A stretch of 64,000 nt of DNA from Gordius sp. MW1 (lineage: Eukaryota > Nematomorpha > Gordioida > Gordea > Gordiidae). How positions within the stretch are numbered: position 1 is the first letter of the stretch; every line of letters begins with the position of its first letter. Of the stretch, positions 1 through 57,581 are shown piece by piece. The notes under the pieces are model-generated. The model was not told the origin of the DNA and made no database searches. It worked only from the letters and a program-made list of their open reading frames with translations. Position numbers and translations under genes: made by a program. The stretch lies in contig OZ038531.1 in NCBI GenBank assembly GCA_964036665.1, positions 19,830,324-19,894,323 of the forward strand. The letters run 5' to 3'.

Positions 1-1150
1 AATTAGGGGGGAGGGGGGGGGGACAAAACACCCCCTGCCCCCTCTCCCCCACTTAAGAAAGAGGGTAAAAAAATTAGGGGGGGGGGGACAAAACACCCCC
101 TGCCCCTCTCCCCCACTTAAGAAAGAGGGTAAAAAATTAGGAAGGGGCAAAACACCCCCATTCCACCCCCTCTCCCTCGCATCAGAAAGAGGGTAAAAAA
201 TTGGGGGGGGGGGGCAAAACCCCCCATGCCCCCCTATCCCCCACATCAGAAAGAGGGTAAAAAATTAGGGGGAGGGGCAAAACACCCCCCTTTTCCTCGC
301 ATCAGAAAGAGGGTAAAAAAATTAGGGGGGAGGGGGGGGGGACAAAACACCCCCTGCCCCCTCTCCCCCACTTAAGAAAGAGGGTAAAAAATTAGGGGGG
401 AGGGGGGCAAAACACCCCCCTGCCCCCCCTCTCCCCCGCATCAGAAAGAGGGTAAAAAATTGGAGGGGCAAAACACCCCCTGCCCCCCCTCTCCCTCGCA
501 TCAGAAAGAGGGTAAAAAATTAGGGGGGGGGCAAAACACCCCCCATGCCCCCCTCTCCCCCACATCAGAAAGAGGGTAAAAAATTAGGGGGAGGGGCAAA
601 ACACCCCCCTTTTCCTCGCATCAGAAAGAGGGTAAAAAATTAGGGGGAGGGGGGCAAAACACTCCCTGCCCCCCCCCCCCGCATCAGAAAGAGGGTAAAA
701 AATTGGGAGGGGCAAAACACCCCCCTGCCCCCCCCCCCCGCATCAGAAAGAGGGTAAAAAATTAGGGGGGGGGGCAAAACACCCCCTCTCCCTCGCATCA
801 GAAAGAGGGTAAAAAAGTAGAGGGGACAGGGGGGCAATACACCCCCATGCCCCCCCCCTCTCCCCCACATCAGAAAGAGGGTAAAAAGTTAGGTGGGGGG
901 GGGGGCAAAACACCCCCCATGCCCCCCTCTCCCCCACATCAGAAAGAGGGTAAAAAATTAGGGGGGGGCAAAACACCCCCCTCTCCCCCGCATCAGAAAG
1001 AGGGTAAAAAATTAGGGGGGGGGGCAAAACGCCCCCCTCTCCCCCGCATCAGAAAGAGGGTAAAAAATTAGGGGGGGGGGCAAACATCCCACCTGCCCGC
1101 CGTTCCTCCCCAGGTGAGAAAGAGGGTAAAAAATAAGGGGGGGGGGGCAA
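1..1150. repeat. G-run/C-run minisatellite, about 18 units of 56-70 bp
   Basis: Each unit has the plan GAAAGAGGGTAAAAAATTAG, then 7-12 G, (A)CAAAACACC, a C-run, TGCCCC, TCTCCC and (CA/GC)ATCAGAAAGAG. G- and C-runs vary in length between units. Each unit can fold back (G-run against C-run). It continues past the left edge. Open frames here are low-complexity artefacts. The ATTAGGGGG..CAAAAC core resembles the G-run miniature elements elsewhere in the window. Confidence 0.95.
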
Positions 1151-1339
1151 ATCTTCACAAATTTTTTTCATAAATAAAACATATTAATTTACTACCTACT
1201 TCTATAATGCATAATAATTAATTATAATTTACTGAATTTACTAGATTGTGACGTCATGATACATTTATTTTTATTTTCTTAAATTAAAAGTTCATTACCT
1301 AAATCTAAATACACAAATATGATAAACAAATTGATATAT

Positions 1340-4329: not shown

Positions 4330-7113
4330 TGAAACCAAAGAACGACTCTCACAATAAGGATCAATTTATATGTATCGGAGAATGTTCTAGAGCACATTTG
4401 GTTATATATAAAATGCGAAGTTTATAAACAAATTCGATGTTACGAAAACAATTTTACATCTCTCCCCGCTTAACCAATTTACATTTATTAAAATTTCTAT
4501 AATTAATCTACGCGGTGGCTTCCTTGGTCTATTCTCCCTTCTTAAGTTTACATCATCCTTAACGTGGTGGCTTCCTTAGTCTATCCTCCCTTCTTAAGTT
4601 TACATCAATCTCCCGGTGTGTCCATTTCTACAGGCAATAGCTCTTCACGTATTGCCTCTTCAAACTCTACTGGTGCTAGTCTTGGTATCTCTTGATCATA
4701 AACTACCTCCTCCTCTTCTAATGATAAATCTTTTAATTTCGGGGAAGCTGAATTTAACAAATTTTGATCTTCAACTACTTCCTCTTCTCTTTTTCTCAAT
4801 TAACTAGCATGTTTGCGCAAAACTTTATTATTACTTTGAACGCTCTAAGATAACAATCGATTCCTGGAGAGTATGTTTCCTTCCCAGACTAATTCATTTA
4901 TCTCAAAGTTTCGTGGCCGTGTCGTCCTATTATCATTGGGTGCGATAGTTTCTGCAGTCGTTTTTAAATCCTCTTCTTTTTTAGGCTCGTCATCATTTCC
5001 ATTCACTTCCTTTTTAACTCGTTTACCCTTGGGAATTGTGCCTTTTTTGGCAGCAATTTTAGACTTGGGTAATACATCTGCGTTTTTTGCATTCGCCTTT
5101 TCCGATTTGATTACATCACTTATTCCCTTTGTTTGTAGGCTTCCATCGTTTTTATCCTCGCGATATTCTTTACCGTTTGTTTGATCAGCGTTTGATTTTT
5201 AGTCTAACCCATTATAATCATCTTCAATCTAGTGCCATCTTAGCTCTCTTCTTTTGAACTGGTTCTTTTTTAACACCTTTTTCAGCCCGCGAAGATGTAG
5301 CTTGACCATCTGAGTCCATTGTGCTAGGTTTCTTAAACTTCTCTACTATTTTATTAGTCGTTGATTGGCCCTCGTTCTATGGTAACGTTCCGAGGTTCTT
5401 TTCAGCTACCTTGAATTCCGATTGCTGATTTAATTGGTCTGTGATTTCGTTTGCATCTTGTAAGGTGCTTTCTTTCAACTTTTTCCCTATCTTTTTGCCA
5501 TTAACTTTCACCGTTTTACACTCTGACCCAACATAGAAAATTCCGGCCAATTTATTCTATTAAATTATCAATCTTCTTACTCGAGTTTTGATTCAAAATA
5601 GTTATTGATTGTTCAACCTTAAAAATAGTGACACATTTGGGACTGCATAATCCAACCTTTAACATCCAGGGTAAGCCAAATAAGGGTACGTCATATGTTT
5701 TTGTAACTATGACAGGTAGTAATTTACTCGTATCTACCCCACTTTAATGTCTGTTTCGCCCAATACATATAATTTTTGATGGCCATAACTCTTAAAGTTA
5801 TGCGTTGGTCTTAATTTAGGCTTCCCAATCTGATTCTAAATCTCCTCATTTATCTCGGACACGCGTCATATTCCAAACGGAATGGAACATCATTTAAAGT
5901 AGCTTCTATTGTTGCTCGTTTCCGACCAATATTGTAATGTGATTAATGTAATTAATTTCGCCAACCACTGTCTCGCAATTATCGAAAACTTGATTTATGA
6001 CTTGTATTAAATGCATTTCTTTTTTATCATCTATTCCTAATAATTGTTCATATAATAATCATCATTTAATTTAATAAATATAAAAAATAATTTTAGCTTA
6101 ATATATATTTCTTAAGAATTAATTTTATTATTTAAAACTACGTAGTCTATCTCTGATAACTTTAAAATAGAAATTTATTAAATAGAAAAACATAAATTTA
6201 ATAATATTAAATAAAATATTTTCTCATCTAAATCAAGAATTTACACATTTAATTTTTTTAAATTAATTTAGTAATTTTGAAAAATCTTACTTTTTTTCAT
6301 AATCATTCCCTTAACATAAATCAAAAATTAATATAAGAAATAAATTGGATAAAAATGTTTTGGTCATTAATATTCAATTTACCTTTTTAACTAATTTATA
6401 AATTTAAACGAACATCAATAAATTAATATTAAACATAATATAGATGGCGCTAAATTTATTAGACAATCATGGTTTTAATTTTAAAATGCTGTTTTTTATT
6501 TATACCCAATTCAATTTTATTTTAATTTACATAAAACATTGATATTTATTAAATCACTACTTTACCATGTTAACATTAAAATGGCGGAAAAAGGGTACAC
6601 CTACTAGGTTTAAATATGATTTAGGAAGGTTCCATAATTTAATCGAAGTTGACATCTTCAAATTTCTTCGGAAATAAATAATCTTTTACTTGCATTACAT
6701 TCTCAATTGCGAAAAATGCCAATAATAATTTTTTGTATATGTACTTCACTTCATTACCCGTGGCGTATATTCCCTTGGCTCTTAATGTATATTATTTTGC
6801 ATTCTCGAAATATTCTTCTCTAGGGATCTATGGGGAAAATAGTTGAAGCATGATTTTCGAAATATTAACCTCGTTCCCCATCACATTTTCCATCGTTATT
6901 GAATTTTCCGTCCTTGTCGCCAAATAAAGCATTTAGATTAGTTTAATATTTAATTCAACATTAGCCAAATACCCGATAAAATGAAACCAAAGAACGACTT
7001 CCTTACAATAAGGATAATTTAAATGTAACGGCGAATGTTCTAGAACACATATGGTTATATATAAAATTCGAAGTATAAAAAAGAATTCTATGTTACCAAA
7101 CACAATTGTTACA
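4330..7113 (-). mobile_element. Degenerate short-LTR Ty3/gypsy-like retroelement, copy A
   Basis: Direct terminal repeats of about 130 bp lie at 4330-4458 and 6982-7113 (read on the minus strand they start TGTAA and end GGTTTCA). A purine-rich tract (about 4459-4471, minus strand) abuts the 3' LTR. Internal minus-strand relics in order: a Gag-like start (about 6905-6660, containing NVMGN, SKIMLQPF), a retropepsin-like region (about 5960-5590; VPFRLEYD, YVPLFGLPW) and a tail like the C-terminus of gypsy integrase (4799-4605; LRREDR, KPP). No reverse transcriptase or integrase core was recognised. 6040-6620 holds unrelated repeat sequence absent from copy B. Confidence 0.7.
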
Positions 7114-8395: not shown

Positions 8396-8812
8396 TTATA
8401 ATTTGCTAAAACTAGAGATGTTAAAGCGCTAGAGATGGTTGTGCAGGTATTGAATTCTGGTAATAGGCACATATCTCCTACCATTCCCATCTAGCATAAC
8501 AGCACATGCTGCTTAATAACCCGGTTACAGCACTGTTACTGGTAGATTAAATCTGCTTATGGCTGCTGGTTAAATAAGATATAAACTAACTTGGCATCGA
8601 GCAGAGTTACTTGATATAAACCGTGTATGAAACTAAACATGGTTTTCAGCAATTTTCCTTATAGCGTACTAGCAGGCAGCTGTCATGTAATGCTAATATT
8701 ATCCTAATTTTAATATTTTTACATATAAGGTGCTTAATATTACTTTAACCACAAAGCAATCGATTAAAATATCTTAAAATTATTAAAAATAAAAAACTTC
8801 ATTTTTGTGGGA

Positions 8813-10396
8813 CAGTCAAAATCGCTTAAGTGAGAATTTCTGGGCCTTAATTTAAAAAAAAATTCTCATTTAAGCGATTTTTAGCACTTATACGATTAAT
8901 TTAATTATTTATTTAATTTATGAAGAGTTTTGCACTCGTGCTATATTTATGAAGCTATAGATTCCAAAAATTAATATCCGTAACATATAATTTATGTATA
9001 TATACATAAATTATTTAGATAAAGTTAATATTTTAAGCCTACTTAACTTTATGCACTTTTAATGCAAATCAGCAACAGCTGACATGTGTTGCATACATTT
9101 AAAATTTATAAATTTTCTAATATATGAAACAATCTAGATAAATATTTGATTTATATTTGTCTTATTTATACATTCTATAGTAATATTTAATCAGAGGATA
9201 TATATTCTAAAATTTACTATTTTAATAGTATGTTTGTTAAATTTTATAATAAACTTATGAAATCTTAAATGAATTTATATCATGTATTATAAATAAATCT
9301 TTGTTTTATACTTGTCTTATATTTGCATATCTTAGATTATTACTAAAAATGGTTTCTTTACATTTGAAATAAAACTAAACAATGGACAAAAATTACTGTG
9401 ATAAGTTTATTTAAATATACACATTATTTAGTAAAATATTGTGTTATAAGTTGCTGATGACTTTCACATTTAAAGAGTTTATTTTCAATAAGGATTCAAA
9501 TAAAGATCTTGTCATCCAGGACTTTTTGTTTAAATAGTAATTAACTGGTATTATTTTATTTTTAAAGCACCGTGGCTTTTGGTATTTTCCAATAACAAAC
9601 ATTTGTTTGTCAGTGCCTGTCTGATTTGTTAAAAAAAAGTATGGTGAGTCTTTCTTTATTCGATTTTAAACCCATGACTTTTTCGGTATTAAAAGCAAAA
9701 GTGCTTTTGCTTCCAGCTTTGTAAAATAAACCTGTTTCATCACAATTGTAAATATTATCTGGATCAAAGGCTAATTAAAAATTATAATAAAAACTTGATC
9801 ATTGATGATAAAAATATTAATTTAAAAAATTTACCTTCATTAAAATGATTTGAAAAAGATTTAGCCTTTGTAAGAAGCAAAGGACCATTATTTGCACATT
9901 GTTTTGAACTAATTTCAGAGAACCATTTTAGAAGGGCTTGTTCTGTCTTTATATATTGTGCTATGTAAATTAAATAATTTTTATTTATACAAACAATATT
10001 ACTTTTTCTTTGTCTTTTTTAATTGAGAGATATGTTATTAGAAGCAGTTGTTTTCAAATCGGTAGCATTTTTGCATATACGGTATATTGTTCCTAATCCC
10101 ACATTGTAATTTTTGGCTAAAGTTGATTTACTGGTAAGTTTGGCTTCTTCTATAATTTTCAACTTTTCATGATAAGTTAAATTTTTTTTCATTCTCACTT
10201 AACCACATATTATCAAGTATAAAAATAATAAAATACCTCTAAAATTTTCCTAGTAATGCGATTTTTATCACTTATACAATTCTCACTTATAAATATATTT
10301 TGCGCAAAATTTAAACGATGTGTTTAAAATATCGCGGTTATTTATCATTTATAAATATTACCATTTATCCGATTCTCACTTATACAATTTCGACTG
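8813..10396 (-). mobile_element. Tigger/pogo-type DNA transposon (Tc1-mariner superfamily), internally deleted
   Basis: Inverted ends CAGTCAAAATCGCTTAAGTG and its near match at the right end (..TATACAATTTCGACTG|TA). The left end itself folds (8820-8880, AATCGCTTAAGTGAGAATTT against AAATTCTCATTTAAGCGATT). Copy B has a continuous sequence at this point (about 29760). Confidence 0.88.
9430..10192 (-). pseudogene. Tigger transposase relic (CENP-B-like HTH plus start of DDE domain)
   Basis: From ATG at 10190-10192 the minus strand reads KKNLTYHEKLKIIEEAK..., a CENP-B/Psq-type helix-turn-helix, with an in-frame stop after SNNISLN. Further down come the second DNA-binding helix region (LLKWFSEISSKQ..NGPLLLTKAK), the first catalytic Asp region YNCDETGLFYKAGSK, KSNKERLTILF, GTDKQMFVIGKYQKPRCFKN and NKKSWMTRSLFESLL. 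The part with the later catalytic Asp residues is gone. Non-functional. Confidence 0.88.
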
Positions 10397-11485
10397 TATT
10401 ACGCTAGTGACACTTGTCTTAATTCACATATTAAGAGCTAAAAAAATAATTGAAACAAAAAGTTGTGATCTAGGGTTTCAAAAAACTATTAAAAATTAAA
10501 AAAATTCTTTTATGGTATTACTTTGGTGACTTTTATGTTTCTTGCTACCACTCTGTATCTCGGAACTTGATAACTAGTTTTTTGCCCACCAAAGTAAATA
10601 ACGTATGGCAAATGGACGAATGTGCGGTATGATGTTATGTAATCAAACCGGTAGGATAACAATACGTTGGATATAAATGTAGACCGAATGCCGCGGATAA
10701 GTACAATCAATAATACGGTTTCAGACGTAAGACGATATATGAGGTATGCAAATGATATCTGTGCGATGTAGGTGAGATGGTGTGATATCCTTTCATCGCT
10801 CGTTTTTCCCCAATTCATGGTCGATTCACGCGCAGTCTCCTCTACCTCATTTGCGTAGGTTCATCTGCGTAGACGTTATTCTCTAAGGTGTGTGCATACT
10901 TAAAATAAACAATTACGTAGACGTTATTCTCTGGGGTGTGTGCATACTTAAAGAAAACAAATTAATCAAAATTTATCCAGACATGCAAATAACTACAACT
11001 ACAACAGTAACAATTGTTATAATTGTCATTTTAAGAGCTAAACAAATAATTCAAACGAAAATTGGTTGGTTAAGGTGTAATAAAATTAATAAAAATTAAA
11101 AAATTGCGGTTCTACCTTAAAAATAGGGAACATTAGACAAAGTAGTATGACTGAAAAGTAACTCCTGCAATAATGATTATCTAGAAGCATTCTTAGCTTT
11201 TATGAATTTGACTATCCTATAATTAAAGGTATGAAGATAATCTTTTAGGATACGATCAGAAGTAAAACAAATCTTAAATACATTTTAGGGGGTAAATCAC
11301 TAAAAAAATGGAGGTAAAGCTTAATTAATTATAGAGTTTTAAAGAAAACGTTGTATCATTCATGCTGTGAAAGCATATTGGATTGGTAAATTAATGAAAT
11401 AATTCAATATATTGGTTTATTTATTTATTATTTATACAGATTATTCCAAATCTATGTAAAGTCATACAGAATTTAATCGGGACTT

Positions 11486-13195: not shown

Positions 13196-13930
13196 TGAGC
13201 TTGAGCTGATGATCATTGATCTATGTTTATAATTCCTTTAAATGGCTGATATAATTTAAAAAGTCAATATTGTATTTGGTACATTTAATAACCTAAGGGA
13301 TATTTGAGTGAGTATTTAAATACATTAGCTAATGCTCATTTAATCTGATCTATGTTTATAAGCCTATCCTTTTAATTGTAATTTTGGTAAAGCTAATTGA
13401 TGAACTCAATATTGTATTTGGTACATTTATAATAACCTAAGGGATATCTGTTGAGCTTGAGCTAATGATCATTATATCTGATCTATGTTTATAAGCTATC
13501 CTTTTAATTGTAATTTTGGTAAAGCTAATTGATGAACTCAATATTGTATTTGGTATATTTATAATAACCTAAGGGATATCTGTTGAGCTTGAGCTAATGA
13601 TCGTTATATCTGATCTATGTTTATAAGCTTATCCTTTTAATTGTAATTTTGGTAAAGCTAATTGATGAACTCAATATTGTATTTGGTATATTTATAATAA
13701 CCTAAGGGATATCTGTTAAGCTTGAGCTAATGATCATTATATCTGATCTATGTTTATAAGCCTATCCTTTTAATTGTAATTTTGGTAAAGCTAAATGATA
13801 AACTCAATATTGTATTTGGTACATTTATAATAACCTAAGGAATAGCTGAGTTAGTACTTGAATACATTGAGCTTGAGCTAATGATCATTATATCTAATCT
13901 ATGTTTATAAGCCTATCCTATTAATTATTT
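13196..13930. repeat. Tandem repeat, units of about 131-133 bp
   Basis: Units start GAGCTTGAGCTAATGATCAT and contain TCTGATCTATGTTTATAAGC, AATTGTAATTTTGGTAAAGC and AACCTAAGGGATA. Unit starts are near 13196, 13453, 13585, 13718 and 13869, with a degenerate unit near 13325. The central units are the most alike. Confidence 0.92.
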
Positions 13931-14815
13931 TTATTGTCTATAAGCTTAAAACTAAGGTAAAGTTTAACTTAGACTAATAAAGTAAAAGATTTTTTAATAA
14001 GCTTCAAATGATTATGTGCATTTTTATACAAAACTAGAGATGAAAATACAAATGCTTGAGCTTGACTAAACTGATATTCATAATTTTCTTGATCTAACCT
14101 AAATTTATAAAATACATGTGAACAAAAAGATTTGATAATATACTTAAATGGCTAAATTGATAGTTTGTTAGTGATTCTCTAAATTTTAATTTATAATTTG
14201 ATAATTATGCATAGTAATTCCTTGAAATATTTTGAAAGTCTTGTGTCGTCATTTTAGTGTCTTCAAAAAAAATACATGTTTTTGTGCCAAAACTAACCTA
14301 TTGAGCTTTTAGGAAGATCACGTGATATGGCATATAACTCCTTATTATGCCATATTAACCAATAGGGTTCAACTGAGCGGCGTCGTTTTTTAAATGTCGA
14401 CGTTTCAGATCATTACACCGGTTCTCTTCCGAAATCACAAGTTAAGCAACGTAGGCAAGTTGATAATCAAAAAATATTCATATTCTCTTAAAGTAGTTTT
14501 TAAAACTAATATTAACAGTATTATTAACTGTTATCATCATTGTTGATCGTTGAAAGATTGTGAGATTAGGTTTGTGTAATATTTCGATTAATGTATTATT
14601 TTATATATCGTTATTCTTGGTGAGGTGTAAAATTTTTGTATTTCCTAATTCGAAATGTTGTGTCGCTTCTCGCAAGCTGTAATCTCTCCTTTTAAATAAA
14701 GTGTTTTCGTGATGGCAAATAATCGTTCGTAAATCGTTCCTTCTTCACATTTATAACAAATTCATTTGAAAGGAATAAGGGAAAGATACGCACAAACAAG
14801 GTTATAAAAGAAAGA
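13931..14815. other. Intergenic stretch; possible 5S-rRNA-like fragment at 14428-14462
   Basis: Mostly AT-rich with no reading frame. CCGAAATCAC AAGTTAAGCAACGTAGGC at 14428-14462 resembles the conserved 5S rRNA internal region around the A box, but no full 5S gene surrounds it. Confidence 0.35.
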
Positions 14816-16905: not shown

Positions 16906-17332
16906 AGCGGATTTAATATTCTTCGTTTAATGAATAATTGGTTAAAAAATTTATTTTGATGCTTTTTGAATATTTTATTCTTACGATTAAAGAAAAATAT
17001 TTGAATGCATAATTGTACTCTTTTGATTTTAATATTATTATTATTTATCTCGCGAGAGTATTTTATCGCATTTATAAGATGCATGTATCGTATATATTAT
17101 ATATATCTTCAATTTGCATCAATAAAGTAAGTACAACTTTTATTACGGTAGTCTTTTATACAATATACCTTTTACAACAACTTATTATATACAATGGTTA
17201 TTTACAATGTGTTATTGTTAAAAAGAACTATAGCGCCATCTATAATAAAGTTTCTATACGTTGTATTTTATTTGCCTTTATTACAATATGATTACATATA
17301 AAATTTCACAAATATATCACTCTTATCAACTA

Positions 17333-18245
17333 TTAATTGCTATGCAATTTATGGGCTCGTTTTTTGGTGTCCGTCCGTCCGTTGTCCGTCCGTTACCCTC
17401 CTATCTATTTGCATTGGGTATATTAGGTTATCGATTTTTTAAATTAATGCATGAGAAAGTTAAATAATTTTTATTTATACAAACAATATTACTTTTTCTT
17501 TGTCTTTTTTAATTGAGAGATATGTTATTAGAAGCAGTTGTTTTCAAATCGGTAGCATTTTTGCATATACGGTATATTGTTCCTAATCCCACATTGTAAT
17601 TTTTGGCTAAAGTTGATTTACTGGTAAGTTTGGCTTCTTCTATAATTTTCAACTTTTCATGATAAGTTAAATTTTTTTTCATTCTCACTTAACCACATAT
17701 TATCAAGTATAAAAATAATAAAATACCTCTAAAATTTTCCTAGTAATGCGATTTTTATCACTTATACAATTCTCACTTATAAATATATTTTGCGCAAAAT
17801 TTAAACGATGTGTTTAAAATAAATTGCATAGCATTAAAAGTAAACAACTTTTATCTATGTTTATTATATAACAAAAACTAGTTAAATTGCATAGCAATTA
17901 AAAGTAAACAACTTTTATTTATGTTTATTATATAACTAGTTAAATTGCATAGCAATTAAAAGTATACAACTTTTATTTATGTTTATTATATAATAGATAA
18001 TTTAACAAATCTTATATATAACACACCGAGGGAGATAGAGATGAGGGGTGGGGCACCTCTTATGCATTAATTTAAAAAATAACACAGCGAGGGAGATAGA
18101 GATGAGGGGTGGGGCACCTCTTTCTCATGCATAGCAATTAAAAAGCGATAACCTAATATACCCAATGCAAATAGATAGGAGGGTAACGGACGGACGACGG
18201 ACAACGAACAACCAAAAACGAGCCCATAAATTGCATAGCAATTAA
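17333..18245. mobile_element. Fold-back element with about 125-bp inverted arms and a captured Tigger segment
   Basis: The left arm (17333-17460: TTAATTGCTATGCAATTTAT, GGGCTCG, CGTCC runs, then ACCTAATATACC complement) is the inverse of the right arm (about 18120-18245). The right half also has two AAATTGCATAGCAATTAA units and two GAGGGAGATAGAGATGAGG units typical of the 1.85-kb family. Between the arms, 17460-17821 equals 9970-10331 of the Tigger element without a visible mismatch. Confidence 0.85.
17460..17821 (-). pseudogene. 362-bp captured Tigger fragment (CENP-B-like HTH)
   Basis: Identical to 9970-10331 over 362 bp as read line by line, including the transposase start ATG, the first helix-turn-helix and the in-frame stop. 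It carries only the 5' transposase region and adjoining sequence, not the Tigger termini. Confidence 0.92.
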
Positions 18246-18399
18246 AATATTTTATCTTCTAATTGGTTTAAATATTTATTAATCAAGATTTTACACATTT
18301 ATATTTTTAAATTAATTTAAAAGTTAAATCCTATTTTTTTTTCATAATCATTCCCTTAATATAAATCAAAAATTAATATAAGAAATAAATTGAATAAAA

Positions 18400-18533
18400 A
18401 TGTTTTGGTCATTAATATTCACTTTACCTTCTTCCTTAATTACGACCGACGGGAAAAGACCAGACGGGCTAACGCTCATACCTTTCTCGCGGTCTAAACT
18501 AAATCTCAATTGGGATTTTACTACGGTCTACAT
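18400..18533 (+). pseudogene. Retroelement pol C-terminal fragment, part 1
   Basis: Plus-strand reading DGKRPDGLTLIPF..NLNWDFTTV followed by the hAT insertion. The pattern (GKRPDG..PW..G..L.WD.TV) is typical of the C-terminal region of many invertebrate non-LTR or related retroelement polyproteins. It resumes in frame at 23711. 18260-18430 resembles 6240-6385. Confidence 0.65.
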
Positions 18534-18618
18534 TAGAGATGTCATATTTTCCCAAAATAGGAAAATAAGGGAAATTTTGAAATAGAACTATGTAGGGTGA
18601 ATCAACAACTCAAAAAAA

Positions 18619-20466
18619 ACTCGGGCCTTCGGCCCTCGTGGGAAGGGGGAGAAGGAAAGGGAAGGGAAGAGGGGAAGGGAAGGGGGGACGACTCATCTGT
18701 ACTTCGTATAAATGTATCATATTTGCTATGCAATTTATGGGCGAGAAAGGTGGGAAGGGGCGAGAATGCCTATAGCGGGGTATTAAATGCCTAATGATTA
18801 ATTAATTATTTATACAAATTTTCCATTATAGGCAAAATGTAATAAAGGCAAAATGTAATATAGGCAAGGGTTAGGGTTAGATTTAGTGTTTGCATCTAGT
18901 TGCGTATTACATTAGTTTTTATGGCCTTTAGTGATTATGGGTCTAACAAACATTATATTATAAAACAACACAATGTTAAGAATTTGCAGAATTGTTGGGA
19001 CAAATTTTTTGTTGAATTTGAACAATTTTTAATTAAAAAAATCAAAAATTTGGCCAATGGTCACTTTTTCTCTAATGGTCAGTACCAACAGATACTCTAT
19101 AAGTCAATGATAGCCAAAAAAACGGAAAAAAATATTTTGATGCTCACTTTGGCCAATGGTCATTTTTTTCCATTGGTCAGCAGCCAGCACACGGTAAAAG
19201 TGGATATAAATTCACAAGAGTAAAAAAAACGAAAAAAAAATTTTCGAATCACATTTTGGCCAATGGTCATTTTTTTCCATTGGTCAGCAGCCAGGACACA
19301 ATAAAAGTGGATATAAATTCATAATAGTCAAAAAAAAAACGAAAAAAAAGTTTTCGAATCACATTTTGGCCAGTGGTCATTTTATTCCATTGGTCAGCAG
19401 CCAGCGGACGACCAAAAAGTCATAATAGCAATGGTAGGAACAGGAACAATGATAATAGTCAAAAAAAAACGAAAAAAATAATTTCGATTCACATTTTGGC
19501 CAATGGTCATTTTTTCCATCGGTCAGAAGCCAGCGGACGGCCAAAAAGTCATAATAGCAATGGTAGTAACAGGAACAATCATAATAGTCAAAAAAAAACG
19601 AAAAAATAAACTCGGATTCACATTTTGGCCAATGGTCATTTTTTTCATTGATCAGCAGCCAACGGAGGGCCAAAAAGTCTTATTATCAATGATAGTAACA
19701 AGAACAATCATAAAAGTCAAAAAAAACTCCGGGATTCTAACCCAAAAACTAGTTAAATTGCATAGCAATTAAAAGTAAACAACTTTTATTTATGTTTATT
19801 ATATAACATTGGTCAGCAGCCAGCGGACGGCCAAAAAGTCATAATAGCAATGGTAGAAACAGGAACAATCATAATAGTCAAAAAAAACGAAAAAAATAAT
19901 TTCGATTCACATTTTGGCCAATGGTCATTTTTTTCATTGGTCAGCAGCCAGCGGACGGCTAAAAATTCTTATTATCAATGATAGTAACAAGAACAATCAT
20001 AAGAGTCAAAAAAAACTCCGGGATTCCAACCCCAAAACTAGTTAAATTGCATAGCAATTAAAAAGTAAATAACTTTTATTTATGTTTATTATATAACTAG
20101 TTAAATTGCATAGCATTAAAAGTAAACAACTTTTATCTATGTTTATTATATAACAAAAACTAGTTAAATTGCATAGCAATTAAAAGTAAACAACTTTTAT
20201 TTATGTTTATTGTATAACTAGTTAAATTGCTTAGCTTTAAAAGTAAACAATTTTTATCTATGTTTATTATATAATAGATAATTTAACAAATCTTATATAT
20301 AACACACCGAGGGAGATAGAGATGAGGGGTGGGGCACCTCTTTCTCATGCATTAATTTAAAAAAGCGATAACCTAATATACCCAATGCAAATAGATAGGG
20401 AGGACAACGGACGGACAACGGACAACGGACAACCAAAAACGAGCCCATAAATTGCATAGCAATTAA
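18619..20466. repeat. 1.85-kb modular composite repeat, copy 1
   Basis: Order: head with GGGCCTTCGGCCC hairpin and GGGAA-purine tract; subterminal TTTGCTATGCAATTTATGGG (inverse of the right end); CAAGGGTTAGGGTTAG; seven GGCCAATGGTCA units; 60-bp CTAGTTAAATTGCATAGCAATT units; one GAGGGAGATAGAGATGAGG unit; GGACAACGGACGG microsatellite; terminus CGAGCCCATAAATTGCATAG. No coding potential: the frames are low-complexity artefacts of the tandem units. Confidence 0.9.
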
Positions 20467-21084: not shown

Positions 21085-21600
21085 ATATTTTGTAAATTTA
21101 CCTTTTTGAGATGTTTGTTTTTTTAACTAAATACTTTTATAAAGATAATGGTAAAGTTTTTGTAAAATTACCTTTTTGAGATGTTTGTTTTTTCAAAGAC
21201 TATACTTTTAGAAGGCTATTTGATATTTTATAGATGTTTGTTTTTTAATTATAAACCTTGGTAAGATAATAGTAGATATTTGTAAATTTACCTTGTTTGT
21301 TTTTTTAACTAAATACTTTTATAAAGATAATAGTAAAGTTTTTGTAAAATTACCTTTTTTAGATGTTTGTTTTTTTAAAAGCTACACTTAGTAGGCTATT
21401 TGATATTTTCAAGATGTTTGTTTTTTAATTATAAACCTTAGTAAGATAATAGTAGACAATTTGTATATTTACCTTCTTGGGATGTTTGTTTTTTTTAACA
21501 ATAAAGATGTTTGATTTTTGAACAATAAAGATGTTTATTTTATTAACTATAAATATTAGTAAGATATTAGTAGATATTTTGTAAACTCACCTTTGAAGAA
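21085..21600. repeat. Imperfect tandem repeats with GATGTTTGTTTTTT core
   Basis: Blocks of TTGTAAAATTACCTTTTT, GATGTTTGTTTTTT, ACTAAATACTTTTATAAAG and ATTATAAACCTTGGTAAG recur in the same order with a higher-order period of about 210 bp. Confidence 0.85.
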
Positions 21601-33652: not shown

Positions 33653-36054
33653 CCATGGGCGTAGCTAGGTTTTGAATTAGGGGGGGGGCAGATTAAAAAA
33701 AAGGTCTTGACTACCCAACAATTTTCCTGAGAGCAAAAAAAAAAAGGTCTCGACTATCCAAAAATTTTCATGCAACCGTAATTTAAATTTTATTTTACCA
33801 AAACAATTTTTTTTTAAACAAATAGTAGTTTATTCTAATAATCACATGGGTAAAATACATTGGTAAATAAAAAAACTCGGGCCTTCGGCCCTCGTGGGAA
33901 GGGGGAGAAGGGAAAGGTAGAGGGGAAGGGAAGGGGGGACGACTCATCTGTACTTCGTATAAATGTATCATATTTGCTATGCAATTTATGGGCGAGAAAG
34001 GTGGGAAGGGGCGAGAATGCCTATAGGGGGGTATTAAATGCCTAATGATTAATTAATTATTTATACAAATTTCCATTATAGGCAAAATGATATAGGCAAA
34101 ATGTAATATAGGCAAGGGTTAGGGTTAGATTTAGTGTTTGCATCTAGTTGCGTATTACATTAGTTTTTATTGATTATGGGTCTAACAAACATTATATTAT
34201 AAAACAACACAATGTTAAGAATTTGCAGAATTGTTGGGAGAAATGTTTTGTTGAATTTGAACAATTTTTAATTAAAAAAATCAAAAATTTGGCCAATGGT
34301 CACTTTTTCTCTATTGGTCAGTACCAACAGATACTCTATAAGTCAATGATAGCCAAAAAAATGGAAAAAAAAATTTTGATGCTCACTTTGGCCAATGGTC
34401 ATTTTTTTCCATTGGTCAGCAGCCAGGACACGGTAAAAGTGGATATAAATTCATAAGAGTAAAAAAAAACGAAAAAAAAAATTTCAAATCACATTTTGGC
34501 CAATGGTCATTTTTTTCCATTGGTCAGCAGCCAGGACACGGTAAAAGTGGATATGAATTCATAATAATCAAAAAAAACGAAAAAAAAGTTTTCGAATCAC
34601 ATTTTGGCCAATGGTCATTTTATTCCATTGGTCAGCAGCCAGCGGACGGCCAAAAAGTGATAATAGCAATGGTAGGAACAGGAACTATCATAATAGTCAA
34701 AAAAAAAACGAAAAAAATATTTTCGATTCACATTTTGGCCAATGGTCATTTTTTCCATCGGTGCGGACGGCCAAAAAGTCATAATAGCAATGGTAGTAAC
34801 AGGAACAATCATAATAGTCAAAAAAAACGAAAAAATAAACTCGGATTCACATTTTGGCCAATGGTCATTTTTTCAGTGGTCAGCAGCCAACGGACGGCCA
34901 AAAAGTCTTATTATCAATGATAGTAACAAGAACAATCATAAGAGTCAAAAAAACCCGGGATTCTAACCCAAAAACTAGTTAAATTGCATAGCAATTAAAA
35001 GTAAACAACTTTTATTTATGTTTATTATATAACATTGGTCAGCAGCCAGCGGACGGCCAAAAAGTCATAATAGCAATGGTAGAAACAGGAACAATCATAA
35101 TAGTCAAAAAAAAACGAAAAAAATAATTTCGATTCACATTTTGGCCAATGGTCATTTTTTTCATTGGTCAGCAGCCAGCGGACGGCCAAAAATTCTTATT
35201 ATCAATGATAGTAACAAGAACAATCATAAGAGTCAAAAAAACTCCGGGATTCTAACCCCAAAACTAGTTAAATTGCATAGCAATTAAAAAGTAAACAACT
35301 TTTATTTATGTTTATTATATAACTAGTTAAATTGCATAGCATTAAAAGTAAACAACTTTTATCTATGTTTATTATATAATAGGTAATTTAACAAATTTTA
35401 TATATAACACACCGAGGGAGATAGAGATGAGGGGTGGGGCACCTCTTATGCATTAATTTAAAAAATAACACAGCGAGGGAGATAGAGATGAGGGGTGGGG
35501 CACCTCTTTCTCATGCATTAATTTAAAAAAGCGATAACCTAATATACCCAATGCAAATAGATAGGGAGGGTAACGGACAACGGACAACGGACGGACGGAC
35601 ACCAAAAAACGAGCCCATAAATTGCATAGCAATTAATATTTAAAAGAAAACGCGTTAAAATCTAATTGGATGGCATTGATCCGTGTATGGAAATCGTGTT
35701 AGATTTGACGATTTCCATAGTGATCTTTAATTTTGTGTAAATTCGCTAATAAGCATCTGTATTATTTGGAGTTAAGTTCAAATAGGGGGGGGGCAGCAGC
35801 GCCCCCTGCCCCCGCCTGCCTGGCTAATTAGGGGGTGGGGCAAAACATATTTTTTTTTTTTAATTTTTAAGGGTTTTTGTATTGAAATCCTCGGCTGCCC
35901 CCCCCCCCCCCCCCCTAATTTGCGAAACCAAATTTTTTTCAATGCAAAAACATTGAAAAATTTAAAAAATTTATGTTTTGCCCCCCTTTAATTGAACTTT
36001 TAAACGTTTTGCCCCCCCCCCCCCCCCTAATCCAAAACCTGGCTACGCCCATGA
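33653..36054. mobile_element. G-run element with CATGGGCGTAGC..GGCTACGCCCATG ends, expanded by a nested repeat
   Basis: Left CATGGGCGTAGCTAGGTTTT followed by a G-run; right C-run, CTAATCCAAAACCTGGCTAC, GCCCATG. The inner 33875-35636 is copy 2 of the modular composite repeat. Further G- and C-runs at 35787-36030 belong to this element. Confidence 0.75.
33875..35636. repeat. 1.85-kb modular composite repeat, copy 2
   Basis: Same module order as copy 1, again with seven GGCCAATGGTCA units having the same unit-by-unit variants, but two GAGGGAGATAGAGATGAGG units and fewer 60-bp units. Confidence 0.9.
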
Positions 36055-42715: not shown

Positions 42716-54725
<12,010 letters not shown>

Positions 54726-55514: not shown

Positions 55515-55659
55515 CGGATTACCGAATAAATTTAAGATCAGCATTAGGAAAAGGATGCATATGAATGACCTGACACTTTTAAGTCATCATTTAAATGGGA
55601 CTTTAAATCCATCCAAGAATAAAACAATTAAAAAATTCTATATAGTCCTGTAAATATTA

Positions 55660-57581
55660 ACTCGGGCCTTCGGCCCTCGTGGGAAGGGGGAGAAGGGAAG
55701 GGAAGAGGGGAAGGGAAGGGGGGACGACTCATCTGTACTTCGTATAAATGTATCATATTTGCTATGCAATTTATGGGCGAGAAAGGTGGGAAGGGGCGAG
55801 AATGCCTTTAGGGGGCTTAAATGCCTAATGATTAATTAATTATTTATACAAATTTTCCATTATAGGCAAAATGTAATAAAGGCAAAATGTAATATAGGCA
55901 AGGGTTAGGGTTAGATTTAGTGTTTGCATCTAGTTGCGTATTACATTAGTTTTTATGGCCTTTAGTGATTATGGGTCTAACAAACATTATCTTATAAAAC
56001 AACACAATGTTAAGAATTTGCAGAATTGTTGGGAGAAATTTTTTGTTGAATTTGAACAATTTTTATTTAAAAAAAAATCAAAAATTTAGCCAATGGTCAC
56101 TTTTTCTCTATTGGTCAGTACCAACAGATACTCTATAAGTCAATGATAGCCAAAAAAACGGAAAAAAAAATTTTGATGCTCACTTTGGCCAATGGTCATT
56201 TTTTTCCATTGGTCAGCAGCCAGCACACGGTAAAAGTGGATATAAATTCATAAGAGTAAAAAAAACGAAAAAAAAATTTTCGAATCACATTTTGGCCAAT
56301 GGTCTTTTTTTCCATTGGTCAGCAGCCAGGACTAAAAGTGGATATAAATTCATAATAGTCAAAAAAAAACGAAAAAAAAGTTTTCGAATCACATTTTGGC
56401 CAATGGTCATTTTATTCCATTGGTCAGCAGCCAGAGGACGGCCAAAAAGTCATAATAGCAATGGTAGGAACAGGAACAATCATAATAGTCAAAAAAAAAA
56501 CGAAAAAAATAATTTAGATTCACATTTTGGCCAATGGTCATTTTTTCCATCGGTCAGGAGCCAGCGGACGGCCAAAAAGTCATAATAGCAATGGTAGTAA
56601 CAGGAACAATCATAATAGTCAAAAAAAAACGAAAAAATAAATTCGGATTCACATTTTGGCCAATGGTCATTTTTTCATTGGTCAGCAGCCAACGGACGGC
56701 CAAAAAGTCTTATTATCAATGATAGTAACAAGAACAATCATAAGAGTCAAAAAAACTCCGGGATTCTAACCCAAAAACTAGTTAAATTGCATAGCAATTA
56801 AAAGTAAACAACTTTTATTTATGTTTATTATATAACATTGGTCAGCAGCCAGCGGACGGCCAAAAAGTCATAATAGCAATGGTAGAAACAGGAACAATCA
56901 TAATAGTCAAAAAAAACGAAAAAAATAATTTCGATTCACATTTTGGCCAATGGTCATTTTTCTCATTGGTCAGCAGCCAGCGGACGGCCAAAAATTCTTA
57001 TTATCAATGATAGTAACAAGAACAATCATAAGAGTCAAAAAAAACTCCGGGATTCTAACCCCAAAACTAGTTAAATTGCATAGCAATTAAAAAGTAAACA
57101 ACTTTTATTTATGTTTATTATATAACTAGTTAAATTGCATAGCAATTAAAAAGTAAATAACTTTTATCTATGTTTATTATATAACAAAAACTAGTTAAAT
57201 TGCATAGCAATTAAAAGTAAACAACTTTTATTTATGTTTATTATATAACTAGTTAAATTGTATAGCAATTAAAAGTAAACAACTTTTATTTATGTTTATT
57301 ATATAATAGATAATTTAACACATCATATATATAACACACCGAGGGAGATAGAGATGAGGGGTGGGGCACCTCTTATGCATTAATTTAAAAAATAACACAG
57401 CGAGGGAGATAGAGATGAGGGGTGGGGCACCTCTATCTCATGCATTAATTTAAAAAAGCGATAACCTAATATACCCAATGCAAATAGATAGGGAGGGTAA
57501 CGGACGGACGGACAGACGGACGGACGGACAGACGGACGGACGGACAACAAAAAACGAGCCCATAAATTGCATAGCAATTAA
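55660..57581. repeat. 1.85-kb modular composite repeat, copy 3
   Basis: Longest copy: seven GGCCAATGGTCA units, five 60-bp palindrome units, two GAGGGAGATAGAGATGAGG units and the longest CGGA microsatellite (about 57499-57545). Flanks read AATATTA on both sides, a candidate 7-bp target duplication. It lies between CKAP5 and PRDX6. Confidence 0.9.

What the first reader, a model, noticed from the sequence alone, without database searches (positions are those of the whole stretch)
17333..18245. Fold-back element that appears to have captured a Tigger transposase fragment
Inverted arms derived from the 1.85-kb family terminus enclose 362 bp (17460-17821) that read identical to 9970-10331, an internal piece of the Tigger element 7.5 kb away. 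The Tigger ends are absent, so simple Tigger transposition does not explain it. Identity in non-coding AT-rich DNA implies a recent copy event, perhaps template switching or gap repair, which also shows the fold-back family was recently active.
Basis: partly seen in the sequence, partly recalled or inferred. Interest (0 to 1): 0.75.

Follow-up and report, generated by a model that had tools for sequence, protein, structure and literature searches.

The report
Repair patch between two broken transposons
A 362-base piece of a nearby jumping gene was copied, letter for letter, into a break between the stumps of two other, oppositely pointing jumping genes; it is most likely a well-preserved scar of DNA break repair and not a new mobile element.

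Summary
In detail: 17460-17821 is identical to 9970-10331 (362/362). The nearby Tigger is the source. The pair shares two substitutions absent from all 20 other genomic copies checked at each site, and the nearest other copy differs at 3 sites. Direction is Tigger to acceptor: the piece is continuous with a 1,586-bp Tigger (8812-10397) and stands alone at 17460.

The 'fold-back element' reading does not hold. The arms are ends of an abundant family (5,356 exact end-matches) with HINE (non-autonomous Helentron) anatomy. They are 90.7% alike, each closer to copies elsewhere. Both are 5' ends in Helentron convention; no 3' end is present. Outer edges are true termini, inner edges are not. The right flank is a repeat that continues leftwards in 8 of 8 examined other copies (of 18 places found); that left half is missing here. 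So this is not one clean insertion.

Best explanation: two opposed HINE insertions lost everything between them and the gap was patched with 362 bp copied from 7.1 kb upstream (repair-mediated duplication, SDSA-like). The kind of event is known; interest is modest.

The parts
8812..10397 (-). Donor: Tigger-like (pogo type) element, 1,586 bp, both terminal inverted repeats present, degenerate transposase on the minus strand
   Evidence: Ends ACAGTCAAAATCGC / TTTCGACTGT; flanks GA..TA here, TA..TA in 6 of 11 other near-full-length copies; 12 of 1,584 sites differ from the majority of 12 copies, itself included; CENP-B_N Pfam hit 34.6 bits, cut-off 21.2
9970..10331 (+). Copied stretch in the donor (contains the CENP-B_N reading frame on the minus strand, about 10020-10192)
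   Evidence: 362/362 identical to 17460-17821; private substitutions shared at window 10021 and 10239
17333..17459 (+). HINE remnant A: 127 bp of the family's 5' end (Helentron convention); outer edge a true terminus, inner edge a break
   Evidence: Up to 99% to genomic copies elsewhere (40 listed at 94-99%); terminus as in complete copies
17460..17821 (+). Templated patch copied from 9970-10331
17820..18245 (-). HINE remnant B: 426 bp of the family's 5' end including part of the tandem array, opposite orientation; 2-bp overlap (TA) with the patch
   Evidence: 95-98% to the 39 other scored genomic places
18246..18450 (.). Right flank: interrupted host repeat (extent approximate); other copies continue leftwards of the insertion point, here the left half is gone
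   Evidence: L070, L071, L072, L088-L091 and window 5998-6355
17210..17332 (.). Left flank, nearly unique, not the missing half of the right-flank repeat
   Evidence: Query 17195-17340: 3 matches in the genome, itself and two partial ones at 72% and 82%; only AT-rich matches of 21 bases or less to the missing half
18618..20466 (-). Complete reference copy of the HINE-like family next door (strand in Helentron convention)

Best explanation
The locus is a repair scar. Two HINE-like rolling-circle elements inserted independently in opposite orientation: copy A with its 5' end at 17333 pointing right, copy B with its 5' end at 18245 pointing left. A break or breaks between or inside them removed both inner parts, the spacer, and the host DNA that once lay left of copy B's insertion (inferred from the missing half of the right-flank repeat). 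The gap was closed by copying 362 bp from the Tigger 7.1 kb upstream, in the same orientation, and joining with 0 bp of overlap on the left and 2 bp (TA) on the right. The likely pathway is synthesis-dependent strand annealing with an ectopic nearby template, finished by end joining. Shown: source, identity, boundaries, origin of the arms from different copies, outer edges at element termini, missing half of the right-flank repeat. Inferred: the break, the size of the deletion, the repair pathway and the order of events.
For: Exact 362-bp identity with hard ends. Two private substitutions shared with the local donor and absent from all 20 other copies checked at each site (18 aligned, two partial ones per site); 0 differences within the pair, 3 to the nearest other copy. 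The 18 loci L011-L028 all lie in longer Tigger sequence (in L026 a HINE hairpin end cuts the Tigger). Arms 90.7% alike, each closer to copies elsewhere. Outer edges coincide with termini of complete copies, inner edges with none seen. Right-flank repeat: 8 of 8 examined other copies (7 fetched and one in the window, of 18 places) carry the left half next to the right half; it is absent left of 17333 and, apart from the intact copy at 5998-6355, from the window (one 36-bp, 83% hit at 21298-21332 set aside). The patch length lies within the range of human repair-mediated duplications (up to 619 bp; PMC2671141, abstract and sections 6 and 7 read).
Against: The deletion is inferred from paralogous repeats; no orthologous empty locus was available. 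Donor and acceptor are 7.1 kb apart, beyond the 5-kb class that holds 824 of 1,136 human cases. The left junction has no microhomology. The left flank is nearly unique, so copy A's own target site cannot be checked. Tigger position 1166/1167, 7-8 bases inside the left edge of the copied piece, is a HINE insertion point in L026 and L085, so the edge may lie at a fragile or preferred site. A chimeric read or assembly join was not tested.
Confidence: 0.72

Rival explanations
1. Replication-based template switching (FoSTeS/MMBIR): a stalled fork jumped from HINE B to the Tigger upstream and then to HINE A, producing the same chimera and the deletion without a two-ended break.
For: Nearby template in the same orientation and 2-bp overlap at one junction; AT-rich inverted repeats nearby.
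Against: Zero overlap at the left junction; [quoted passage not shown] Breakpoints alone cannot separate this from SDSA.
Confidence: 0.17
2. Capture during rolling-circle transposition: one chimeric HINE picked up the Tigger piece and inserted here as one unit.
For: Helentrons are reported to carry captured gene fragments (PMC4067079, passages); both outer edges are true family termini.
Against: Two 5' ends and no 3' end or 3' palindrome in the 913 bp; arms from different copies; the right-flank repeat shows no clean insertion; no second copy among the places scored.
Confidence: 0.06
3. Two HINEs inserted into a Tigger copy and most of the Tigger and HINEs was then lost, leaving the piece in place.
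For: A similar arrangement exists: L085 has 249 bp of Tigger between two HINE hairpin ends.
Against: The piece would then be a different Tigger copy, but it shares both private substitutions and every base with the local one; the flanks are not Tigger; the inner HINE edges are not termini.
Confidence: 0.03
4. Assembly artefact or chimeric read.
For: Both neighbours of the patch are high-copy repeats.
Against: The junctions are not at sequence shared by donor and acceptor beyond 2 bp, so an overlap error would not make them; the assembly is in 12 contigs. Reads were not available.
Confidence: 0.03

Closest known systems
Repair-mediated duplications by capture of proximal DNA (Pace, Sen, Batzer, Feschotte 2009, PMC2671141; abstract and sections 6 and 7 read)
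   Same: Short copy of DNA from the same chromosome at a break in transposon sequence; one best donor; length within range; microhomology (2 bp on one side) and deletion at the junctions
   Different: Donor 7.1 kb away (most of theirs under 5 kb); the acceptor is a deletion between two elements and not an insertion in one; non-vertebrate genome, judged by repeats and protein matches only
Pol theta alternative end joining with templated insertions in Drosophila (PMC2895639; passages read)
   Same: Templated insertion from flanking DNA at an end-joining junction
   Different: Their inserts average 5.5 and 7.6 bases in the two assays with wild-type mus308; 362 bp is far longer, so strand invasion with longer synthesis is more likely
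HINE / DINE-1 non-autonomous Helentrons (PMC4067079, PMC7492417; passages read)
   Same: Palindromic subterminal inverted repeat 3 nt from the 5' end, a second copy towards the 3' end, microsatellite, central tandem array, palindrome by the 3' end, T-rich target, no target duplication
   Different: The 3' subterminal repeat lies about 100-125 nt from the 3' end (38-60 in the mite families); the palindrome is 5 nt from the end (8-35 in the mite families); no autonomous partner found
Drosophila Foldback (FB) elements (recalled, no call)
   Same: Inverted arms around unrelated sequence
   Different: FB arms are, as recalled, long, repeat-rich and alike within a copy, and form a mobile family; here 127 bp, 90.7% alike, one locus seen

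Membership tests
Repair-mediated duplication (SDSA-type templated insertion) | Acceptor identical or nearly so to one specific donor, others more distant | tested here: met
Repair-mediated duplication (SDSA-type templated insertion) | Donor intrachromosomal and near | tested here: met
   7,128 bases lie between donor and acceptor (9970-10331 and 17460-17821); farther than the 5-kb cut-off used in PMC2671141, so met only in the wide sense
Repair-mediated duplication (SDSA-type templated insertion) | Microhomology, filler or deletion at junctions, no poly-A tail | tested here: met
   2 bp right, 0 bp left; loss of the left half of the right-flank repeat
Repair-mediated duplication (SDSA-type templated insertion) | Orthologous pre-event locus | not testable with these tools
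   The genome has no relatives held (note)
HINE (non-autonomous Helentron), for the arms' parent family | Palindromic subTIR near the 5' end and inverted partner near the 3' end | tested here: met
   4 of 4 complete copies
HINE (non-autonomous Helentron), for the arms' parent family | Palindrome near the 3' end | tested here: met
   GGGCCGAAGGCCC (3-nt centre) 5 nt from the end in 4 of 4. Met by sequence; an RNA-parameter fold of the terminal 40 nt on the other strand paired the stretch differently
HINE (non-autonomous Helentron), for the arms' parent family | Insertion in T-rich/TT sites without target duplication | tested here: met
   Two nested insertions compared with the unbroken array unit (L075, L038+L073); flanks
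HINE (non-autonomous Helentron), for the arms' parent family | Autonomous Rep/helicase partner sharing the ends | tested here: inconclusive
   150 Rep matches from 150 of 714 candidates scored; of 23 loci compared (20 short, 3 of 10 kb) only L062 carries the ends, and there as a separate complete copy
Mobile fold-back family | Several copies with paired outward arms | tested here: not met
   0 pairs within 1 kb among the first 100 of 5,356 ends listed; 2 within 2.5 kb, one a nested insertion (L075), one a 55-bp arm stretch about 0.6 kb from a separate copy with both ends (L074). No genome-wide list was available, so rare cases are not excluded
Mobile fold-back family | Clean empty site | tested here: not met
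   Joined-flank query gave no place holding both flanks (40 of 336 candidates scored); right-flank repeat continues differently in 8 of 8 examined copies
Tigger/pogo (donor) | TIRs with TA target duplication | tested here: met
   TA on both sides in 6 of 11 other near-full-length copies; GA..TA at the donor itself
Tigger/pogo (donor) | CENP-B type DNA-binding domain and DDE catalytic domain | tested here: inconclusive
   CENP-B_N above cut-off; HTH_Tnp_Tc5 below its cut-off; no family hit in the third piece

The most novel reading that the evidence does not exclude
Two head-on HINE 5' ends act as a rolling-circle fold-back unit: the inverted 5' end resembles the 3' subterminal repeat, so a chimera with two 5' ends could be mobilised, and the Tigger piece was taken up by template switching during its replication.
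Probability: 0.05. Interest if true: 0.55.

Novelty: new member of a known kind. Interest (0 to 1): 0.3.

Why it matters
It is an unusually legible repair scar: donor identified by private substitutions, no change since, acceptor built of elements with known ends. A repeat-rich genome like this one would allow such scars to be counted and the template distance to be measured, as was done for vertebrates in PMC2671141. It also warns that outward inverted ends can be debris of two insertions and need not be a fold-back family.

Tried and rejected
Fold-back family: rejected on arm dissimilarity, absent 3' ends, flank evidence and lack of further compact pairs in the sample seen. Simple inverted duplication of one arm: rejected, 90.7% between arms against up to 99% of the left arm to copies elsewhere. 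Nested HINE-in-HINE, which does occur (L038+L073, L075): rejected here because neither flank of the 913 bp is HINE. Local HINEs as source of the left arm: the four other local matches are 83-96% identical, one of them over only 58 bp. Reciprocal product of a balanced rearrangement: a pattern for HINE hairpin ends next to AATATTAAA gave 41 places, two of them on C5; in the six fetched as loci (L079-L084) the missing half was not found, only 31-32-base weak matches in three (the listing had been cut and showed two of the six). The other 35 were not examined. Organism: the XMAP215-like reading frame matches many animals at 23-43%, most at 30-36%, so no closer placement was made.

Against my reading: donor distance exceeds the 5-kb class in PMC2671141; the left junction lacks microhomology; the deletion is inferred from paralogues; 8 of 18 right-flank places were examined, the first three chosen because their matches reached the insertion point. 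Tigger position 1166/1167, 7-8 bases inside the left edge of the copied piece, is a HINE insertion point in L026 and L085; I take the nearness to be chance in a T-rich stretch but cannot exclude a fragile site.

Full report
Observation. The window lies at C5:19830324-19894323 of an unnamed 211.8-Mb genome in 12 contigs; an XMAP215-like reading frame suggests an animal. 17460-17821 and 9970-10331 agree in 362 of 362 bases, and the agreement stops at once on both sides. A genome search with the piece scored 40 of 101 candidates: the two window copies are 100%, other full-length near matches 97-99%, then a group at 70-82%. The 18 loci L011-L028 all lie in longer Tigger sequence.

Source. In an alignment of the patch, the local Tigger and those 18 copies, patch and local Tigger differ by 0, the nearest other copy by 3 and the farthest by 8 substitutions. 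Two substitutions (columns 52 and 270) are found only in the pair, a third (column 356) in the pair and 1 of 18 others. Among the 153 pairs of other copies the minimum is 1. Three partial copies left out of that alignment (L085, L086, L087) also lack the private bases wherever they cover the sites, two copies per site. The local Tigger differs from the majority of 12 near-full-length copies (itself included) at 12 of 1,584 sites; 3 of these lie in the copied stretch and all 3 are shared by the patch. So copying came after those changes and nothing has changed since. With 0 of 362, the usual 95% bound of 3 events over two lineages gives at most about 0.4% per lineage, about half the Tigger's own divergence of 0.76% (my arithmetic). 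Direction follows from the anatomy: the stretch is part of an element with both ends at 8812-10397 and stands alone at 17460.

The donor. The Tigger has inverted ends and a TA-type target (TA..TA in 6 of 11 other copies, GA..TA here). Its minus strand carries a broken transposase: a CENP-B_N domain (34.6 bits, cut-off 21.2), a below-cut-off Tc5-type domain, and no family hit in the third piece tested. The copied stretch covers the CENP-B_N frame (about 10020-10192), so 'transposase fragment' is right for roughly half of it.

The arms. Left 17333-17459 and right 18120-18245 are inverted and 90.7% alike; family sequence on the right runs from 17820 to 18245. The left arm is up to 99% identical to other genomic copies (listed copies 94-99%; 40 of 1,983 candidates scored), the right part 95-98% to the 39 other scored places (40 of 2,879). 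They therefore derive from two different copies. The outer ends coincide with the termini of complete copies. In the orientation used for Helentrons the element starts TTAATTGCTATGCAATT with a palindromic subterminal repeat 3 nt from the end, has an inverted partner starting 120-125 nt from the other end, a CT-rich microsatellite, and a palindrome 5 nt from its 3' end, in 4 of 4 complete copies. The palindrome is read from the sequence; a fold of the terminal 40 nt with RNA parameters, on the other strand, preferred a different pairing. Central tandem arrays are listed. Two insertions into the array of another copy show a T-rich target and no duplication. These are HINE features as described in PMC4067079 and PMC7492417 (passages). 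The 27-base end occurs 5,356 times exactly (2,686 + 2,670; control 0). An autonomous partner was not found: Rep matches are numerous (150 listed), but of 23 loci compared only one carries the ends, as a separate complete copy.

Not one clean insertion. The first bases right of 18245 belong to a repeat with 18 other places. Eight were examined: L070, L071 and L072, chosen because their matches reach the insertion point, window 5998-6355, and four more (L088-L091) taken from the rest. All eight carry the left half beside the right half; L070 lacks about 50 bp next to the point. That half is not left of 17333, where only AT-rich matches of 21 bases or less occur, and in the window it occurs otherwise only in the intact copy (a 36-bp, 83% hit at 21298-21332 is set aside). 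A query of the joined flanks gave no place holding both (40 of 336 candidates scored). The left flank is nearly unique. So copy B landed in that repeat, and its inner part and the repeat's left half were later lost.

Junctions and mechanism. The right junction has a 2-bp overlap (TA), the left none. Both outer boundaries are element termini and both inner boundaries are not, which puts the breakpoints inside. The simplest history is two opposed HINEs, loss of everything between, and closure with DNA copied from 7.1 kb upstream. Insertions in Drosophila end joining average 5.5 and 7.6 bases with wild-type mus308 in two assays (PMC2895639, passages), so a longer copying pathway is more likely. 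The human repair-mediated duplications are the closest match: 824 of 1,136 had donors within 5 kb, and those were up to 619 bp (PMC2671141, abstract, sections 6 and 7). Template switching at a fork would leave the same marks.

Is there a fold-back family? Among the first 100 listed ends there are 0 outward pairs within 1 kb and 2 within 2.5 kb. One is a complete HINE nested in another (L075), the other a 55-bp arm stretch beside a separate copy (L074). The list is the start of contig C1 only, so rare further cases are not excluded. Literature searches listed no title or abstract start describing this arrangement in a Helentron family; that is a search of listings, capped at 8 to 20 rows each.

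Verdict. Observation confirmed, source confirmed, copying recent relative to the donor, fold-back family not supported. A new, clean example of a known kind of repair event.

Noticed in passing
window 18618-20466, 33874-35636, 55659-57581: Three complete copies of the HINE-like family in 64 kb, 97.7-98.2% alike outside gaps; a further partial end at about 44586-44646.
   Followed up: yes
L002 about 1926-1931; L005 about 1931: Head-to-tail neighbours of the family, one end directly beside the next or within about 4 bases, as expected from rolling-circle read-through.
   Followed up: no
L075 781-2693; L038 1501 onward with L073 1-277: Complete HINEs nested in the array of another HINE at the same T-run of the array unit; the nested copies are no more alike (98.0%) than other pairs (97.2-98.7%), so a target hot spot is likely.
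   Followed up: partly
L085 641-889: 249 bp of Tigger between the facing hairpin ends of two HINEs; with L026 it shows two HINE insertions at the same Tigger position 1166/1167.
   Followed up: partly
window 17033-17209: Part of a repeat whose copies often come in pairs about 5.6 kb apart elsewhere, suggestive of long terminal repeats of a retroelement.
   Followed up: no
window 50445-54725: 1,426-codon uninterrupted reading frame related to XMAP215/mini spindles, up to about 36% identity over half or more of its length.
   Followed up: partly
window 1-1161: G- and C-rich tandem array with about 64-bp units.
   Followed up: no
window 13318-13937: Tandem array with about 133-bp units.
   Followed up: no
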